Positions 11,079 to 59,611 of a stretch of 64,000 nucleotides of DNA are shown here, one piece after another. The notes under the pieces are model-generated. The model was not told the origin of the DNA, made no database searches, and saw only the letters and a program-made list of their open reading frames with translations. The DNA comes from Thermotogota bacterium (lineage in GTDB: Bacteria > Thermotogota > Thermotogae > Thermotogales > DSM-5069), in contig JAKPGA010000017.1 of the NCBI GenBank assembly GCA_029551145.1, positions 60,448 to 124,447 on the forward strand, in the 5' to 3' direction. The position numbers and the translations under genes were made by a program. Position 1 is the stretch's first letter; each line of letters starts with the position of its first letter.

Positions 11079-11250
11079 AAACCTCGAAGAATCACTGGAA
11101 ACTGCATAGGAAGCTACAAGGTCAAGGCCTCGGCCTATTAGTACCGGTTGGCTCAACACCTTACGGTGCTTACACCACCAGCCTATCAAGGTCCTGTTCT
11201 CGGACCGGCCTTACTCCCTTAACGGGATGGGAGGTCTAATCTTGGGACGT

Positions 11251-11281
<31 letters not shown>

Positions 11282-11749
11282 ACTCATGGGCGTAGCTACC
11301 CGGCGTATGCCCCTGGCAGGACAGCCGGTACACCAGAGGCCCACTCTCCCCGGTCCTCTCGTACAAGGGGAGACCTCCCGCAAACCTCCTACGCCTGCGG
11401 CCGATAGGGACCGACCTGTCTTACGACGGTCTGAACCCAGCTCACGTACCCCTTTAATAGGCGGACAGCCTAACCCTTGGGACCTGCTTCAGCCCCAGGA
11501 TGGGATGAGCCGACATCGAGGTGCCGATCCTCGCCGTCGATGTGAACTCTCGGGCGAGACTAGCCTGTTATCCCCGGGGTAACTTTTGTCCGTTGTCGAC
11601 GACCCTTCCACTCGGAAGTCGTCGGGTCACTAGGACCGACTTTCGTCTCTGCTCGACCCGTCGGTCTCACAGTCAGGCCGGCTTATGCCCTTGCACTCAT
11701 CGGTGGATTTCCAACCCACCTGAGCCGACCTTCGCGCGCCTCCGTTACA

Positions 11750-11794
<45 letters not shown>

Positions 11795-12103
11795 TCCCAA
11801 CCTGCTCTTCACAGGTTCAGGTTAGAATTCCGACACACCGAGGGTGGTATCCCACCGTCGGCTCCCCCGACCCTGACGAGCCGGGTTCACAGCCTCCCAC
11901 CTATCCTGTACACGATGTGTCAGAATCCAATACCAGGCTACAGTAAAGCTCCACGGGGTCTCTCCGTCTAGCCGCAGGTTGAGGGCATCTTCACCCCCGT
12001 TGAAATTTCACCGGGTCCCCCGCCGAGACAGTGCCCCAGTCGTTACGCCATTCATGCAGGCCAGAACTTACCTGGCAAGGTATTTCGCTACCTTAGGACC
12101 GTT

Positions 12104-12908
<805 letters not shown>

Positions 12909-12932
12909 GTTTGGAGCTACGCCTTGCGGCCT

Positions 12933-12974
<42 letters not shown>

Positions 12975-14332
12975 CCTATACATCCTCTTTACGAGTTTGC
13001 AGAGGCCTGTGTTTTTGGTAAACAGTCGCTAGGGCCTTGTCACTGCGACCGCTTCGGGCTCCCTCAGTTTCCAGGTTGCCCCTTCCTCTGAGTTCACCCT
13101 ACTGCGGCACCCCTTCTCCCGAAGTTACGGGGTTAATTTGCCGAGTTCCTTGGCGAGGGTTGTCCCGCTCCCCTTAGCTTTCTCAGCTTGCCCACCTGTG
13201 TCGGTTTACGGAACGGGCACCTACAATCTCAGCGGTACGCGAGGTTTTTCTTGGCAGCATGGGGTCGGTGCCGTTGGACCCTCACGGGCCCTTCCCATCA
13301 CGGCTCAAGCTCCGGGTGCGGATTTGCCTACACCCATCAACGCCCTAACCGCTTGGAAGGGAATGCCACTTACCCTCGGCACTTACCCTTCTGCGTCACC
13401 CCTCGTACCTCGATTGCAGATGGTGCTGGAATATTAACCAGCTTCCCTTCGGCTATCCCTTTCGGGTTCGCCTTAGGGTACCGACTAACCCTGGGAGGAC
13501 GACCCTTCCCCAGGTACCCTTGGGCATTCGGGGGGAGAGATTCTCACTCTCCTCTCGCATACTCATGTCCGCATTCTCACTTCCGCCTCGTCCAGTAGCC
13601 CTCGCGGGTCTACCTTCGCCCTACAGCGGAAAGCTCCCCTACCGCCTGTACCAAATGGTACAGACCCATGGCTTCGGGGGATGGCTTCAGCCCCGTTACA
13701 TCTTTGGCGCAGTACACCTCGACTGGTGAGCTGTTACGCACTCTTTAAAGGATGGCTGCTTCTAAGCCAACCTCCCAGTTGTCTGAGGTGCACCACATCC
13801 TTTCCCACTTAGCCATCTCTCCGGGCCCTTAGCCGATGGTCTGGGCTGTTTCCCTTTTGTCCATGGAGCTTATCCCCCACAGACTTCCTCCCGAGCTTTA
13901 TGTGCAGGGATTCGGAGTTTGACAGGGTTCGGAGGTTACCCCCCTAGCCCTATCAGTGCTCTACCCCCTACACAGACCACTCGAGGCCGCACCTCAATGC
14001 GTTTCGGGGAGAACCAGCTATCACCGAGTTCGGTTAGCTTTTCACTCCTACCCCCAGGTCATCCGAGGATTTTTCACTATCCATCGGTTCGGACCTCCAG
14101 TGGGTTTTAACCCACCTTCATCCTGCCCAGGGGTAGCTCACCCGGCTTCGGGTCTGCCGCCAGTGACTAACGCCCTATTCGGACTCGCTTTCGCTGCGGC
14201 TACGCCTCTATCGGCTTAACCTTGCCACTGACGGCAACTCGCGGACTCATTAATCAAAAGGCACGCCGTCACCCTTGCGGGCTCCGACTTAGTGTAGGCA
14301 TGCGGTTTCAGGTTCTATTTCACTCCCCTCCC

Positions 14333-14363
<31 letters not shown>

Positions 14364-14919
14364 CGTGCACTATCGGACGATGGAGAGTATTTAGCCTTGG
14401 AGGGTGGTCCCCCCAGATTCCCGCAGGATTCCACGGGTCCCGCGGTACTCGGGAACACAGTAAGAAGTCTTCTCCCTTTCGCCTACGGGGCTTTCACCCT
14501 CTATGGCGTGCCATCCCAAGCACTTCGACTAAGGAGAAGATTTGTAACTTCTCGGCGTGTCCGTAGCCACACCCCACTGTGTCCCACAACCCCAGTGCAA
14601 CAACGCCCACGGGCTTGAACATCGCACTGGTTTAGGCTCTTCCCCTTTCGATCGCCTCTACTCAGGGAATCTCGTTTGATTTCTTTTCCTCGGGGTACTG
14701 AGATGTTTCACTTCCCCCGGTTCGCACCTTACGGCAACCGGTCTTGCGACCGTTAGGTTTCCCCATTCGGGAATCCCCGGATCAACACCTGTTTGCGGCT
14801 CCCCGGGGCTTATCGCAGCTTGCCGCGCCCTTCATCGCCTTCCATCGCCAAGGCATTCACCGCATGCCCTTAGTACCTTGACCTTTTGCTTCCTATGCAG
14901 TTTTCAATGACCCTTCCAT

Positions 14920-54981: not shown

Positions 54982-55302
54982 ATGATCACTGTGACAACCG
55001 AGAAGATCGAAGGTTACGAGATCACCGAGACATTGGGCCTTGTGATGGGCAACACTGTTCACTCAAAACACCTGGGTAAAGACATTGCGGCTGCCTTCAA
55101 AACCCTCGCAGGCGGCGAAATAAAGTCATACACTGAACTTCTGACTGAAGCAAGAAACATAGCAATGCAAAGAATGATTGCGGAAGCCGAGAAACTCGGA
55201 GCCGATGCCATTGTCGGCGTTAGATTTGGCAGCTCTTCGATCATGCAGTCTGCGGCTGAAGTTCTTGCCTATGGCACGGCAGTGAAACTCAAGAAGATCT
55301 AA
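54982..55302 (+). CDS. YbjQ/UPF0145 family protein
   Basis: A 106-residue protein with the YbjQ pattern: TTEKIEGYEITETLGLVMGNTV, GGEIKSYTELLTEARNIA and GADAIVGVRFGSSS. Members form pentamers; the function is unknown. GGGGAG precedes the ATG at 54982. Its last 14 nt overlap the end of lysA, which runs the other way. Confidence 0.87.
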   Translation: MITVTTEKIEGYEITETLGLVMGNTVHSKHLGKDIAAAFKTLAGGEIKSYTELLTEARNIAMQRMIAEAEKLGADAIVGVRFGSSSIMQSAAEVLAYGTAVKLKKI

Positions 55303-56437
55303 ACAGTTTCTTGCCGTCCCAAATAACTTCTTTTGGTTTTGGTATCAAGTTGTAGTCAGATGCCATGGCATAGCCGTATGCTCCAACGTCACATATTGCA
55401 ACAAACTCACCTTCTTTCGGTTCTGCCATGGTGTATGATTTTCTGAACGTATCAGCGCTTTCGCAGATAGGTCCCACAACATCGGCTTTAATCTTTTTTC
55501 GCCCTTTTGTCTCGTAAAGCGGTATTATCTTGTGTTTTGCCCCATATAGGGCGGGTCTTATCAAATGAGTCATACCTGTATCAAGCATCACGAAAATCTT
55601 GCTGGCTGTTTTTTTCACATATTCGACCTTCGAAACCAAATACGCCGACGGTGCAACAATCCAACGTCCAAGTTCTAATACAATCGCTGAACCAAATTCC
55701 TTCAAAATAGGAAAGATCTTTTGCCTGTACTCTTCAAGATCCAGTGACTTACCATTTCCATAGTCTATACCCCATCCGCCACCAAGGTTGAAAACCTGCA
55801 CTCTTAGACCAACAGACCTTGCAAAATACTTGATGGAAACAACTGCTTCGAGATATGGTTCCACTTCTGTTATCTGTGAACCAATGTGACAGTGAAGGCC
55901 TATCAACTCAAGCATCTTGTTAGACCTTATTCGCTCGATCATCGCAGAGGCTGTATCAAAATCCACACCGAACTTGTTTTCCCTCAACCCAGTCGCGATA
56001 TGCCGATGAGTCTTTGCATCGACATCGGGGTTGACTCTGATCGATACTCTGGCTGGCCTCGAGAGGACCGTTTCAAGTCTGAGAAGTTCTTCATAACTGT
56101 CCAGATTTATAGAAAAAACACCATCCTGGACATACTTGTCTAACTCTTCCTTTTTCTTGCAGTTCCCATTGACTATTATTCTATCTGGTGTAAAACCTAC
56201 AGAACGAACTTGATTGTATTCACCAAAGGAGACGACGTCTACCATCGCACCTGATTTTTCAAGAGCACTCAAAATGTCTTTGTTGAAATTCGCCTTCACG
56301 GCAAAAGCAAGATGAAAGTCGAAGTCTTTGAACAGTTCAGTCACCACTGAGATTCTCTGCAGAACAAAAGGTAGGTCGTACACGTAAAGCGGTGTACCGA
56401 AAGACATTGCAGCGTCAACAAGTGTATGCGAGTCCAT
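55289..56437 (-). CDS. lysA: Diaminopimelate decarboxylase
   Basis: A 382-residue fold-type III PLP enzyme that makes lysine from meso-diaminopimelate. The PLP Lys is in LAFAVKANFNKD, IGLHCHIGSQI and FNLGGGWGIDYG bind PLP phosphate, and the C-terminal GPICESADTF provides the catalytic Cys. AGGGGTGG precedes the ATG at 56437. It starts 16 nt after the ABC ATPase gene, so it is likely co-transcribed with the aromatic-leader transporter operon. Confidence 0.93.
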   Translation of the reverse strand: MDSHTLVDAAMSFGTPLYVYDLPFVLQRISVVTELFKDFDFHLAFAVKANFNKDILSALEKSGAMVDVVSFGEYNQVRSVGFTPDRIIVNGNCKKKEELDKYVQDGVFSINLDSYEELLRLETVLSRPARVSIRVNPDVDAKTHRHIATGLRENKFGVDFDTASAMIERIRSNKMLELIGLHCHIGSQITEVEPYLEAVVSIKYFARSVGLRVQVFNLGGGWGIDYGNGKSLDLEEYRQKIFPILKEFGSAIVLELGRWIVAPSAYLVSKVEYVKKTASKIFVMLDTGMTHLIRPALYGAKHKIIPLYETKGRKKIKADVVGPICESADTFRKSYTMAEPKEGEFVAICDVGAYGYAMASDYNLIPKPKEVIWDGKKLFRSS

Positions 56438-56453
56438 CAAACCACCCCTCAAC

Positions 56454-57203
56454 TCAAGTAGTTGTGGTAAACACAGTTGATCTTATCATGGCCTTGAGTT
56501 GAGAAGCCATCACTTTTTGTTGCGATTTATCGATCTTTGTGCAAATTCTTCCATCTTCCATCACGATCACACTGCTGCCGAATTGTTCTGCAATTGTCAT
56601 GTCATGGGTGATCATCACGATGGTGGTGCCGAGCTCTTTGTTTATTCTTTGGGTCAATTCCATGATCTTCTCTGTGCTCTTTGGGTCAAGCGCCGCCGTA
56701 TGTTCGTCGAGCAGTAGCAATTTCGGGTTTGAAGAGACTGCCATCACTATTGCCAGGGCTTGCTTTTGGCCACCAGATAACTTCGCCGCTTTTCTTTTTA
56801 AGGTCTCTTCAAGACCCATTTCTGTCGACTTCAACAGCTCAACACTTTTTGGATCGATTTTTCCAAAACCAAGCCCTCTGATGCCCTTTCTGCGTGCGAG
56901 AATTAGATTCTCCTCCACTGTGAGATTTGGAAAAACTCCTTGGTTTGGGTCCTGACAGACTATGCTCGCATTTTTGAAAATCTTTTCAGAAATCACAGGT
57001 ATTCCAAAGATTTTGCAACTGCCTTCGGCCGGTTTCACATCGCCCACCAACAATTTCAAAAGTGTCGACTTTCCAGCACCATTTGATCCAACAATCACCA
57101 CGAATTCACCTTCATCAACCCTCAGAGAGACATTTCTCAGAGCTACCTTTTCGTCCAGTGTCCCCTTGTTGTAAATGACCGTCACATTTTCAATTTGAAT
57201 CAT
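56454..57203 (-). CDS. ABC transporter ATPase, TrpZ-like
   Basis: A 249-residue ATPase: Walker A GSNGAGKST, Q-loop CQDPNQGVFPNLTVEENL, signature LSGGQKQAL, Walker B LLLLDEHTAALDP. The DEHTAALDPKS wording, with His after Glu, is common in ATPases of TrpX/PF04392-type uptake systems. It overlaps the permease by 4 nt. Confidence 0.88.
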   Translation of the reverse strand: MIQIENVTVIYNKGTLDEKVALRNVSLRVDEGEFVVIVGSNGAGKSTLLKLLVGDVKPAEGSCKIFGIPVISEKIFKNASIVCQDPNQGVFPNLTVEENLILARRKGIRGLGFGKIDPKSVELLKSTEMGLEETLKRKAAKLSGGQKQALAIVMAVSSNPKLLLLDEHTAALDPKSTEKIMELTQRINKELGTTIVMITHDMTIAEQFGSSVIVMEDGRICTKIDKSQQKVMASQLKAMIRSTVFTTTT

Positions 57204-58159
57204 ACGGTCACCTCACTCTTCTTGAATCTTCTTGCTGCAATGACAGCTACGACAAAAAGTGCAGTGAGTAATTTCATGTCACTTGGCTTGAAGCCGATGC
57301 GGTACCCATACTTCATCGCAAAGGTCAAAAGAAATTGATAAAGCAAAGCTCCAACAATTGGGAAGATGGCACCGTATATTGGCTGACGAGAACCAAAGAC
57401 AATCTCTCCAAGTATCACGGCTGCAAGACAGACAACAACAGTTCCTATGCCCATGTTGACATCAGCGAAACCACTGTACATTGAGAATAATGCGCCAGAA
57501 AATCCCGCAAAAACATTGCCCATGATCAATCCAACATAGGCAAACAGATCAGGATTGACACCCAAAACCTTAACGGCAAACCGGTTTCTGCCATAGCCTC
57601 GTAGCATCGTGCCAAATTCGGTTTTGAGAAACAGCGAGAGAATCACAATCGATGCCAAAACAATCGCAGAGATTATCAAAAGATCATGTCCGTCACCCAA
57701 ATTAGTGAACGGGATCTTCACCGCCTTCAAACCACTGGCCTCGAAACTCGCCGGTACATCACCAAGCAGATCATCTAAGGGTGTTTTCCCAACTATCTGT
57801 TCATAGTTCATGATCTTTCCCGTATCGAATTTGGGTACCGGTAGATTAGGTGCATTCATGACTCTGATACTCAACGAGTAAAGACCAGTCATCACCATTA
57901 TGGAGGCAAGCAAAGAATTGATCTTAAACCTTGTCGTTATGAATGCAACAACTGCGCCGGCTGCACCAGCAGCAAGCACAGCTATAACGGTTGAAAAGAC
58001 CCACCCATGACCGGAATGAAGGAGGACGACCGCGACGGCTCCTCCAAGAACATAGGAGCCATCGGGCGTCAGATCGGGAAGATCAATGAGGCGGAATGAT
58101 ATATAAACACCCATGGCGGCCAAAGACAACAAAAGCCCTTGTTCAATTATTGGGATCAT
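57200..58159 (-). CDS. ABC transporter permease, TrpY-like (LivH/RbsC superfamily)
   Basis: A 319-residue membrane protein with about nine helices. SLAAMGVYISFRLIDLPDLTPDGSYVLGGA near the N terminus and GYGRNRFAVKVLGVNPDLFAYVGLIMGN are typical of this permease group. It overlaps both neighbours by 4 nt. Confidence 0.87.
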   Translation of the reverse strand: MIPIIEQGLLLSLAAMGVYISFRLIDLPDLTPDGSYVLGGAVAVVLLHSGHGWVFSTVIAVLAAGAAGAVVAFITTRFKINSLLASIMVMTGLYSLSIRVMNAPNLPVPKFDTGKIMNYEQIVGKTPLDDLLGDVPASFEASGLKAVKIPFTNLGDGHDLLIISAIVLASIVILSLFLKTEFGTMLRGYGRNRFAVKVLGVNPDLFAYVGLIMGNVFAGFSGALFSMYSGFADVNMGIGTVVVCLAAVILGEIVFGSRQPIYGAIFPIVGALLYQFLLTFAMKYGYRIGFKPSDMKLLTALFVVAVIAARRFKKSEVTV

Positions 58160-59127
58160 CTTGACACCTCTTTACCATCTTTGACAATTATGTTGGCTCT
58201 CTCAAGAAGATCTGATGGTACAGTTATGCCAAGTTGGTTAGCGATATCGAGGTTTATGTACAGAGTCAGTGAATCTGGACCAACCACATGAGATTCAAGA
58301 TCACTCGTTTTGGCACCTTTCAGCAGAGCGACAAGCAACTGTCCTGTCTCGACTCCAACCTGGAAATAGTTAAAACCAAAGCCTATGACACCTCCACCAC
58401 GTGCGATGTCTATGTCCGCTGCCACAATCGGTTTCTTCAATCTTAGAGCCGCGCTTCCTATAGACTCGATCGAGGATGCTGCGGTATTGTCAGTGCCGAT
58501 ATACAAAACATCCACATCTGGTCCTATGCTGTTCAAAGCAGTAATCATCTCACTTGGAGAAGTACCAGGAATGTCAACGATTGTCATTTCGAGAGATGGC
58601 GCCGCTGATTTAGCAATATTGGTCAATGTGACGGAGTTTGCCTCGCCTGGGTTGTAGATCACACCGATTTTCTTGGCATTTGGGAAAACCTTCCTTATGA
58701 GTTTCAGTTGTGTCGCAACTGGTACCATATCTGAAACTCCAACGACATTTGATGTGTTCTTGCCAAGTTGCTTGATCAACCCAGCTCCGACGGGATCCGT
58801 TACCGCTGAGAAGATGACGGGTCTGTCTGTGATCGCTTGAACACATGCCTGGGCTGATGGTGTCGCAATGGCTACAACAAAATCCACCTTTTCACTGGCA
58901 AACTTCTTGGCAATCGCCACAGCATTTTGCATACTCCCTTGCGCATTCTGCCTGTCAATGACCACATCCTGACCAACTTTGAAGCCGGCGTCTTCGATTG
59001 CCTTAACAATTCCGTCAAAGACCGCGTTCAAAGCTGGATGGTCCACAATTTGGGTAATACCAACCCTTACAGCAGAAAAACTCACAACACAAATCGCTAA
59101 GACTACGGCGGTTATGAACCTTTTCAT
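58156..59127 (-). CDS. ABC transporter substrate-binding protein, TrpX-like (PF04392)
   Basis: A 323-residue exported protein: signal peptide (FITAVVLAICVVSFSA), then VRVGITQIVDHPALNAVFDGI, characteristic of the TrpX/YtfQ-like ABC_sub_bind family. AITDRPVIFSAVTDPVGAGL and GVIYNPGEANSV are family landmarks. GGGGGTG precedes the ATG. The Tyr/Trp/Phe-rich leader upstream argues for an aromatic amino acid, most likely tryptophan, as ligand. Confidence 0.88.
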   Translation of the reverse strand: MKRFITAVVLAICVVSFSAVRVGITQIVDHPALNAVFDGIVKAIEDAGFKVGQDVVIDRQNAQGSMQNAVAIAKKFASEKVDFVVAIATPSAQACVQAITDRPVIFSAVTDPVGAGLIKQLGKNTSNVVGVSDMVPVATQLKLIRKVFPNAKKIGVIYNPGEANSVTLTNIAKSAAPSLEMTIVDIPGTSPSEMITALNSIGPDVDVLYIGTDNTAASSIESIGSAALRLKKPIVAADIDIARGGGVIGFGFNYFQVGVETGQLLVALLKGAKTSDLESHVVGPDSLTLYINLDIANQLGITVPSDLLERANIIVKDGKEVSR

Positions 59128-59152: not shown

Positions 59153-59188
59153 AAAAAAAGAGGGCATCCTTTTTGGATGCCCTCTTCC
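59153..59188 (-). terminator. Leader terminator of the TrpX operon
   Basis: GAGGGCATCC-AAAAA-GGATGCCCTC followed by seven Ts on the minus strand, 26 nt before the binding-protein start. It sits between promoter and first structural gene, so it is an attenuator. Its 5' strand can instead pair with 59246-59257. Confidence 0.9.
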
Positions 59189-59323
59189 TTTACCTTTTTT
59201 CTTAGATTCCCCTATTTATGTACCAAGTGGTATTAGGGGAACCTTGGAAGAGGGCATTCCCCTAAACCACCAATAAGCGTATGAAAATTGAGCCACCTTT
59301 TGATTTGAAGCCATTCTATACTT
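59189..59323 (-). promoter_or_regulatory. Attenuator leader with alternative helices
   Basis: Segments in transcript order: A1 TTTAGGGGAAT (59256-59266), A2 ATGCCCTCTTCC (59246-59257), B GGTTCCCCTAA (59233-59243), C TAGGGGAATC (59205-59214), D GGAAGAGGGCATCC (59175-59188), E GGATGCCCTC (59160-59169). A2 pairs with D over 12 bases and excludes the D:E terminator. B can pair with A1 (9 bp) or C (10 bp). A1 lies immediately after the Trp-Trp codons. This is the logic of ribosome-mediated attenuation. Confidence 0.8.
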
Positions 59324-59326
59324 CAC
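59216..59326 (-). CDS. Leader peptide with Tyr-Ala-Tyr-Trp-Trp-Phe
   Basis: A 36-residue peptide from GTG at 59326 with GGGGG seven bases upstream: MKYRMASNQKVAQFSYAYWW then FRGMPSSKVPLIPLGT and TAA. Tandem Trp codons are at 59267-59272, flanked by two Tyr and one Phe. It begins about 25 nt after the expected transcription start and ends before the terminator. Stalling at Trp (or Tyr) codons would free the antiterminator. Not a stable product; it acts through its translation. Confidence 0.78.
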   Translation of the reverse strand: MKYRMASNQKVAQFSYAYWWFRGMPSSKVPLIPLGT

Positions 59327-59357
59327 AGAAAATCCCCCAGTAAATTTTATTGCCTAC

Positions 59358-59387
59358 ATTATACCAGAATGTACATTTCATTGTCAA
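59358..59387 (-). promoter_or_regulatory. Promoter of TrpX leader operon
   Basis: Consensus TTGACA (59382-59387), an 18-nt spacer and consensus TATAAT (59358-59363) on the minus strand. Confidence 0.85.
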
Positions 59388-59536: not shown

Positions 59537-59611
59537 GGGTGCGTAGCTCAGTGGAAGAGCGCTTCCTTGACGAGGAAGAGGCCGTAGGTTCAATCCCTGC
59601 CGCACCCACCA
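59537..59611 (+). tRNA. tRNA-Val (GAC)
   Basis: A 75-nt cloverleaf: acceptor GGGTGCG/CGCACCC, anticodon arm CTTCCTTGACGAGGAAG with anticodon GAC, T-arm GTAGGTTCAATCCCTGC, encoded CCA. A terminator follows. Confidence 0.95.

What the first reader, a model, noticed from the sequence alone, without database searches (positions are those of the whole stretch)
59153..59387. Ribosome-mediated attenuator for an aromatic amino acid ABC transporter
A consensus promoter is followed by a 36-codon leader with a ribosome site, containing Tyr-Ala-Tyr-Trp-Trp-Phe. Immediately after the Trp codons begins a segment that either pairs with the 5' strand of the terminator (12 bp, 59246-59257 with 59177-59188) or leaves it free to form the 10-bp terminator with seven Ts. 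A second switch (59233-59243) pairs with either flank. A ribosome stalled at Trp would mask 59256-59266 and let 59205-59214 pair with 59233-59243, leaving 59246-59257 to trap the terminator strand. A ribosome reaching the stop codon at 59216 would cover the middle and allow termination. TrpXYZ systems in Firmicutes are typically T-box controlled; a peptide-based version in a thermophilic Thermotogales lineage would be new to me.
Basis: partly seen in the sequence, partly recalled or inferred. Interest (0 to 1): 0.88.

Follow-up and report, generated by a model that had tools for sequence, protein, structure and literature searches.

The report
Leader-peptide switch controlling aromatic amino-acid uptake
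In front of a predicted aromatic amino-acid uptake operon, this Pseudothermotoga-like bacterium has a short reading frame with a Tyr-Ala-Tyr-Trp-Trp-Phe codon run and two predicted competing RNA folds; ribosomes stalling there for lack of those amino acids would likely switch uptake on, and all 47 related binding-protein genes found in 103 genomes of the phylum carry an aromatic-codon leader, whose codons likely match what each transporter carries.

Summary
Confirmed, and larger than reported. The leader, antiterminator (59246-59257 with 59177-59188), terminator and second switch are all there, and the helix that could hide the antiterminator takes in both Trp codons. All 47 PF04392 binding-protein genes found in 103 Thermotogota genomes have an aromatic-codon leader before a terminator, with unrelated RNA sequences between families. 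A folding model with a ribosome edge puts the on/off point within three codons of the last aromatic codon in 45 of 46 leaders, exactly on it in 28. The signal is aromatic amino acids, not Trp alone: leaders of operons with a permease use two or three aromatic kinds (40 of 40); leaders of orphan binding proteins use one (7 of 7; window width chosen after seeing the data). Of the leaders found, aroF's are mostly mixed (19 of 23) and trpE's are Trp (10 of 10). The window's genome has no hit for aroF (at 1e-40), aroC or trpE, so is probably an aromatic auxotroph. The mechanism, classical ribosome-mediated attenuation, is inferred by comparison, untested in cells. New are the phylum, the transporter target and the partition of specificity among paralogues; one subscription survey (Lopatovskaya 2010) could not be read.

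The parts
59382..59387 (-). -35 hexamer TTGACA
59358..59363 (-). -10 hexamer TATAAT, preceded by TG
59333..59338 (-). ribosome site GGGGGA of the leader
   Evidence: sequence; G-rich sites before the leader starts of orthologues
59216..59326 (-). leader ORF, GTG start, 36 codons plus TAA: MKYRMASNQKVAQFSYAYWWFRGMPSSKVPLIPLGT
   Evidence: homologous leaders
59264..59281 (-). regulatory codons Tyr16 Ala17 Tyr18 Trp19 Trp20 Phe21
59257..59273 (-). segment 1 (contains both Trp codons); can pair with segment 3 to enclose segment 2
59246..59257 (-). segment 2, antiterminator 5' strand ATGCCCTCTTCC
59227..59243 (-). segment 3, can pair with segment 1 (off state) or segment 5 (on state)
59204..59214 (-). 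segment 5, pairs with segment 3
59175..59188 (-). segment 6, shared by antiterminator (with 2) and terminator (with 7)
59153..59169 (-). segment 7 and seven-T run of the intrinsic terminator
58156..59127 (-). TrpX-like substrate-binding protein, PF04392 (263.5 bits); NF041285 hit below its cut-off (244.7 of 390)
57200..58159 (-). permease, PF02653
56454..57203 (-). ATPase, PF00005

Best explanation
The 59153-59387 region has the sequence anatomy of a ribosome-mediated transcription attenuator, a leader ORF with an aromatic codon run followed by mutually exclusive antiterminator and terminator pairings, and it likely raises transcription of the downstream PF04392 uptake operon when charged Trp-, Phe- or Tyr-tRNA runs short. 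Shown by sequence and computation: the leader, the possible pairings, their conservation, and the register. Inferred: with enough aromatic amino acids the ribosome passes the codon run, segment 2 is covered and then held in the 1:3 hairpin, so 6:7 terminates. When a ribosome stalls on Tyr18-Phe21 it opens 1:3 and masks segment 1; segment 3 pairs with 5, and segment 2, just in front of the ribosome, captures segment 6 before segment 7 is made, so RNA polymerase reads through. In the phylum the codon run would be the specificity element: mixed runs head operons with the permease, one-amino-acid runs head extra binding proteins or, for Trp, trpE.
For: Homologues: 47 binding-protein genes in 40 of 103 phylum genomes at E 1e-30; all 47 have a leader with an aromatic run and a terminator (45 of 46 by script; L021 by hand; the 47th, L155). 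Antiterminator pairing lies in the 1% tail of shuffles in 37 of 46 and the 5% tail in 42 of 46. The 1:3-type helix is in the 5% tail for 17 of 20 genus/paralogue representatives. Register: antiterminator probability first halves within 3 codons of the last aromatic codon in 45 of 46 leaders, exactly there in 28; 150 of 184 codons just before the switch are aromatic against 41.8 at random places (0 of 20,000 as high), and 63 of 80 against 18.2 for one per genus/paralogue. For the 20 representatives 19 stay within 3 codons at every ribosome edge from 9 to 15 nt, and 20 at 70 C for the two edges tried there. Specificity: one aromatic kind in 7 of 7 orphan binding-protein leaders, two or three in 40 of 40 operon-head leaders, for 4-5-codon windows. 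In G090 two tandem copies share the leader start MIKDNNKNLINIFSF but have FYFYYW or FF as run. The same switch stands before DAHP synthase (aroF) and EPSP synthase in G002. Of the leaders found, aroF's are mixed in 19 of 23 and Tyr-only in 4; trpE's are Trp in 10 of 10, one with a Tyr. The three solved relatives bind Tyr, Phe and Trp. G000 has no aroF match at 1e-40, nor aroC or trpE at 0.001. No Rfam family covers the leader.
Against: No expression data. The full RNA at equilibrium favours the terminator, and the free leader 59190-59290 favours 3:5 over the 1:3 hairpin, so both the off-state hairpin and antitermination must win by timing, which was not modelled. With no ribosome near, the model also forms the antiterminator (0.99 from the start codon), so the untranslated state is uncertain. 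The switch rule was tightened after a looser one gave 78 of 184 against 41.8. Codon changes inside the run give no sign of selection for the amino acids (changed codon types synonymous/nonsynonymous 2/4, 2/3 and 0/2 in three groups). L005 has one Trp codon and several homologues none. Pairing misses the 5% tail in L055, L061, L066, and in L059 where the script chose the wrong run. The 1:3 helix fails for L012, L018, L065. 7 of 30 aroF and 20 of 30 trpE loci gave no leader. Bipolaricaulota L112 does not fit the register (offset -7).
Confidence: 0.86

Rival explanations
1. Nascent-peptide arrest: a specific leader-peptide sequence stalls the ribosome when a free aromatic amino acid or another ligand is bound (TnaC- or Erm-leader-like), rather than by lack of charged tRNA.
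For: Within the window's family the peptide is conserved beyond the aromatic codons (YAYWWFRGxPSS, with one W in L005).
Against: Across the phylum the shared property is a run of Phe, Tyr or Trp codons; kinds swap (WWW, FAFAF, YAYY, YYYWY, FYFWYW) and track the gene controlled. RGxPSS lies in segments 1 and 2, whose bases are constrained by pairing.
Confidence: 0.05
2. A tRNA- or metabolite-binding RNA (T-box, riboswitch) or an RNA-binding protein (TRAP-like) works the terminator and the leader ORF is incidental.
For: trpXYZ of Streptococcus suis is under a Trp T-box (PMC9382623, passages read).
Against: No Rfam family at gathering score in the leader or in the nine other loci searched. A frame with an aromatic run is kept in 47 of 47 while the RNA sequence is replaced between families. 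The run sits at the model's switch point.
Confidence: 0.04
3. A constitutive terminator with chance ORF and chance complementarity.
For: Complementary copies of a terminator arm can arise by local duplication; the leader part alone folds no better than many shuffles (z -1.65).
Against: 0 of 300 shuffles reach the 2:6 pairing; pairing and register recur with other sequences in most of 20 genus/paralogue groups.
Confidence: 0.01
4. The attenuator is real but reads Trp only; Tyr and Phe codons are passengers.
For: Trp19 and Trp20 lie in the best register, and Trp is present in all ten leaders of the window's own family. The trpE leaders found are Trp.
Against: Leaders without Trp in the run exist in the same gene family (L024 YYF; L055, L059 Tyr; L061, L064, L066 Phe). 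Phe21 is also in register. The window's binding protein has Asp and Tyr at the two pocket positions that are Ala and Gln in the Trp-binding relative SP1069.
Confidence: 0.12

Closest known systems
Ribosome-mediated attenuation of enterobacterial amino-acid operons such as trp (Rfam Trp_leader and others)
   Same: Leader ORF with tandem codons for the controlled amino acid, antiterminator against intrinsic terminator, switch set by ribosome position (recalled textbook mechanism).
   Different: Target is an uptake operon; phylum Thermotogota; no Rfam match; the helix that could hide the antiterminator contains the regulatory codons, and a 3:5 helix nests inside the antiterminator; mixed aromatic codons; one gene family carries differently coded copies. 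PMC3766115 (passages read) says the attenuator motifs in Rfam were then restricted to His, Leu, Thr and Trp and may have originated in gamma-proteobacteria.
T-box control of trpXYZ in Streptococcus suis (PMC9382623, passages read)
   Same: Same transporter family; termination-based; expected induction on amino-acid limitation.
   Different: No T-box found here; sensing would be through a translating ribosome.
T-box specifier codons used to predict transporter specificity (PMC2494555, passages read)
   Same: Idea that the regulatory codon tells the substrate of a paralogous transporter.
   Different: Different RNA mechanism; that survey reports no T-box in its 2 Fusobacteria/Thermotogae genomes.
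uORFC-13-1 motif upstream of aroF in Acholeplasma (PMC8632094, passages read)
   Same: uORF with Phe-coding U run and a terminator before aroF, proposed attenuation.
   Different: Other phylum, Phe only, biosynthesis only.
Surveys of leader genes and attenuation: Lopatovskaya et al. 2010 (doi 10.1134/S0026893310010164) and Korolev et al. 2016 (PMC4833913)
   Same: Large-scale searches for leader genes or classical attenuators; the 2016 paper includes Thermotogae among its groups, and from memory the 2010 list may too.
   Different: The 2010 paper is not held; of the 2016 paper I read passages only, and its tables are on an outside site. Whether either lists these leaders is unknown.

Membership tests
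Ribosome-mediated transcription attenuator | Translatable leader ORF ahead of an intrinsic terminator | tested here: met
   47 of 47 homologues, of which L021 was completed by hand and L155 read separately
Ribosome-mediated transcription attenuator | Run of codons for the amino acid handled by the operon | tested here: met
   Aromatic run in all 47; solved relatives bind Tyr, Phe, Trp; this operon's own substrate not tested
Ribosome-mediated transcription attenuator | Antiterminator that excludes the terminator | tested here: met
   Shared segment 6
Ribosome-mediated transcription attenuator | Ribosome position on the run decides between the folds | tested here: met
   By model only: 45 of 46 within 3 codons, robust to edge length
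Ribosome-mediated transcription attenuator | Readthrough rises when the amino acid is limiting | not testable with these tools
   Needs cells or a coupled system
T-box | Match to the Rfam model (stem I with specifier loop, T-box sequence) | tested here: not met
   No hit at gathering score
Rfam Trp_leader | Match to the covariance model | tested here: not met
TrpX equivalog NF041285 | Score at or above the curated cut-off | tested here: not met
   244.7 of 390 bits
PF04392 ABC_sub_bind | Score at or above gathering cut-off | tested here: met
   263.5 bits, cut-off 25.9

The most novel reading that the evidence does not exclude
Thermotogota run their aromatic amino-acid supply on a phylum-wide, translation-read 'address code'. 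Each binding-protein gene, and many aroF and some trpE genes, carries its own leader whose Phe, Tyr and Trp codons state which shortage should switch it on. After gene duplication the code is rewritten by changing the codon run (FYFYYW against FF in one tandem pair), so leaders can be used to read off the substrate of otherwise indistinguishable transporter paralogues.
Probability: 0.6. Interest if true: 0.76.

Novelty: new variant of a known kind. Interest (0 to 1): 0.64.

Why it matters
Classical attenuation is usually told as a proteobacterial and actinobacterial device for biosynthetic operons. Here it appears to control uptake as well as synthesis across a whole phylum that includes many heat-loving bacteria. 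Natural series of leaders with one, two or three kinds of codon give a ready-made test of which codon positions a ribosome must stall on, and a possible way to assign substrates to PF04392 paralogues from DNA alone.

Tried and rejected
T-box, riboswitch and other Rfam elements: none at the site. Alkalibacillus relatives: upstreams of three of the six loci (L113, L115, L118) were scanned and showed no aromatic leader. A first switch definition (last codon at half maximum) caught late unrelated pairings and gave 78 of 184 against 41.8; it was replaced by the first drop; both are reported. The run of L059 and the terminator of L065 were set by hand, and L021 was added by hand; the run end of L028 was also set by hand. 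Pocket test: Glu263 of CD0873 is named as Tyr-selective (PMC6816091, passages). The aligned position is Asp in the window, in the 14 mixed-leader protein rows aligned and in both Tyr-leader proteins, and Phe in L061, L064 (Phe leaders) and L063 (Trp leader), but Asp again in L065 (Trp) and L066 (Phe), so it fits only partly. Codon-change counts within the run were uninformative. Covariation inside f10 alone is thin, one two-sided change in the 2:6 helix; the case rests on whole-helix replacement between families. No covariance model was built. trpE: of 30 loci fetched 9 gave a leader by script, none in the seven g13 genomes; L124's upstream was misplaced there and was read by eye as L051; most trpE matches, f10 included, score under the TIGR00564 cut-off. 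aroF: 30 of 61 matches were fetched and 23 carried into the model; L072, L088, L090, L093, L095, L096, L097 gave no leader call and were dropped. Confidence was lowered from 0.88 to 0.86 on re-reading (free RNA prefers 3:5 to 1:3).

Full report
Observation. The promoter is a 12-of-12 match with an 18-base spacer. The leader GTG at 59326 has GGGGGA six bases before it; its 36 codons include Tyr16-Ala-Tyr-Trp-Trp-Phe21. Segment 2 (59257-59246) can pair for 12 bases with segment 6 (59188-59177), which otherwise forms the terminator with 59169-59160, followed by seven Ts. The region with its terminator folds far better than 200 shuffles (z -6.2); the leader part alone does not (z -1.65). One thing was missed: segment 1 is longer. 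TTGGTGGTTTAGGGGAA can pair with TTCCCCTAATACCACTT (about 15 pairs, -22.1 kcal/mol, against -17.5 for 3:5, as bare duplexes), so the Trp codons themselves form one side of the hairpin that would enclose segment 2. In the free RNA, however, the minimum-energy fold is 3:5.

Gene context. The operon is a PF04392 binding protein, a PF02653 permease and an ABC ATPase, with lysA one base further on. The binding protein falls below the TrpX equivalog cut-off, so 'TrpX-like' is as far as the name goes. Its three solved relatives hold Phe (3LKV), Tyr (6HNI) and Trp (3LFT). The genome (94.6% complete) shows no match to the aroF query at 1e-40 and none to the aroC and trpE models at 0.001, while all 14 control genomes ring for aroC and for trpE. 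It is probably an aromatic auxotroph. Of the 11 genomes of its family only G002 has aroC.

Homologues. A phylum search found 47 binding-protein genes in 40 of 103 genomes at E 1e-30. All 47 upstreams have a short frame with a dense aromatic run, then an intrinsic terminator: 45 of 46 found by script, L021 by hand, L155 as the 47th. In most, the terminator's 5' arm can pair with bases just after the run: against shuffled leaders, 37 of 46 are in the 1% tail and 42 of 46 in the 5% tail. Sequences differ completely between families: ATGCCCTCTTCC, ACGTCCTTTCTT, GACACCCAATTTG and GGCATCCAC all serve as segment 2, each matched by its own segment 6. The hiding helix passes the 5% tail in 17 of 20 representatives.

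Register. For each leader the RNA in front of a ribosome was folded for every A-site codon, taking the leading edge 12 bases ahead, up to the terminator loop. In the window the antiterminator has probability 1.00 with Trp19 in the A site, 0.86 with Trp20, 0.60 with Phe21, 0.24 with Arg22 and 0.00 from Gly23 on. Over 46 leaders the first fall below half lies within three codons of the last aromatic codon in 45 and exactly on it in 28. The four codons up to the fall are aromatic in 150 of 184 cases, against 41.8 for random places (0 of 20,000 as high); one per genus/paralogue gives 63 of 80 against 18.2. For the 20 representatives, edges of 9-15 bases keep 19 within three codons with 56-63 of 80 aromatic, and 70 C at edges 12 and 14 keeps all 20. 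A looser rule tried first gave 78 of 184 against 41.8. Covering segment 2 must abolish pairing; the informative point is that segment 2 starts close to the end of the run almost everywhere.

Specificity. Runs are not always Trp. L024 has Tyr-Tyr-Phe; L055 and L059 only Tyr; L061, L064 and L066 only Phe; L063 and L065 only Trp. Gene order explains this: the 40 leaders ahead of a binding protein followed by a permease (39 with the ATPase seen; L021's record ends first) have two or three aromatic kinds in the last 4-5 codons of the run, and the 7 leaders ahead of a binding protein without its own permease have one. The window width was chosen after seeing the data; at 6-7 codons L059 gains a Phe. 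The seven come from four genomes in three genera, each genome also having a mixed-leader operon. In G090 the two leaders of a tandem pair share MIKDNNKNLINIFSF and then differ: YFYYWRHTR before the operon with permease, FRGGTQ before the extra binding protein. Pocket residues agree only in part.

Wider regulon. In G002 a second copy of the same attenuator precedes a DAHP synthase (TIGR01361, above cut-off) and an EPSP synthase (PF00275). Of 30 aroF loci fetched (of 61 matches) 23 gave leaders, mixed in 19 and Tyr-only in 4, including YYYFWFNRGTCP in the g13 genomes; 22 of 23 fit the register. Of 30 trpE-type loci 10 have Trp leaders, one with an added Tyr; 9 of 10 fit, the tenth (L051) missing only because the script picked another run; 20 showed none, among them all seven g13 genomes. 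Common-pathway genes tend to read several amino acids and the Trp branch reads Trp, as expected if the codons are the sensor.

Mechanism and limits. The best reading is classical attenuation. Shown: anatomy, conservation, register. Inferred: stalling on uncharged tRNA, the 1:3 off state, capture of segment 6 before 7 is made, readthrough. Equilibrium folding favours the terminator once made and 3:5 over 1:3, so timing decides and was not modelled; the untranslated state is unclear. No expression data were available.

Novelty. In the listings of the ten paper searches I saw no report of aromatic leaders in Thermotogota; the library lacks most subscription journals, and the one survey most likely to contain them was not held. 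Passages read in PMC3766115, PMC2494555, PMC8632094, PMC4833913, PMC6816091 and PMC9382623 describe neighbouring cases but not this one; PMC2965389 held none of my terms. I file it as a new variant of a known kind.

Noticed in passing
window 11118-14883, ORF 12180-12728 (-): The 23S rRNA gene spans 3766 bases against a 2925-position model and holds a 182-codon LAGLIDADG endonuclease ORF (PF00961, 81.8 bits): probably an intron with a homing endonuclease.
   Followed up: partly
L042 / L154 (G046 C43): A Trp leader (SAWWWHRS) with the same kind of terminator switch precedes a TIGR04076/4Fe-4S protein, a second 4Fe-4S protein and an aldehyde ferredoxin oxidoreductase: a possible Trp-linked operon outside transport and synthesis.
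   Followed up: partly
L012 / L040 (G063, family f9): Binding protein 73% identical to the window's and attenuator 84% identical in DNA, while the other f9 best matches are 52-56%: transfer of the operon together with its switch is likely.
   Followed up: no
L112 (Bipolaricaulota record): A 36%-identical homologue outside the phylum has a leader ending HYAYSYWYPRF and a terminator, but the ribosome model does not place its switch at the run.
   Followed up: partly
window 55289-56452 (-): lysA (diaminopimelate decarboxylase) starts directly after the transporter ATPase gene and may share the attenuated transcript.
   Followed up: no
window 59537-59611 (+): tRNA-Val (GAC) lies upstream on the other strand.
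   Followed up: no
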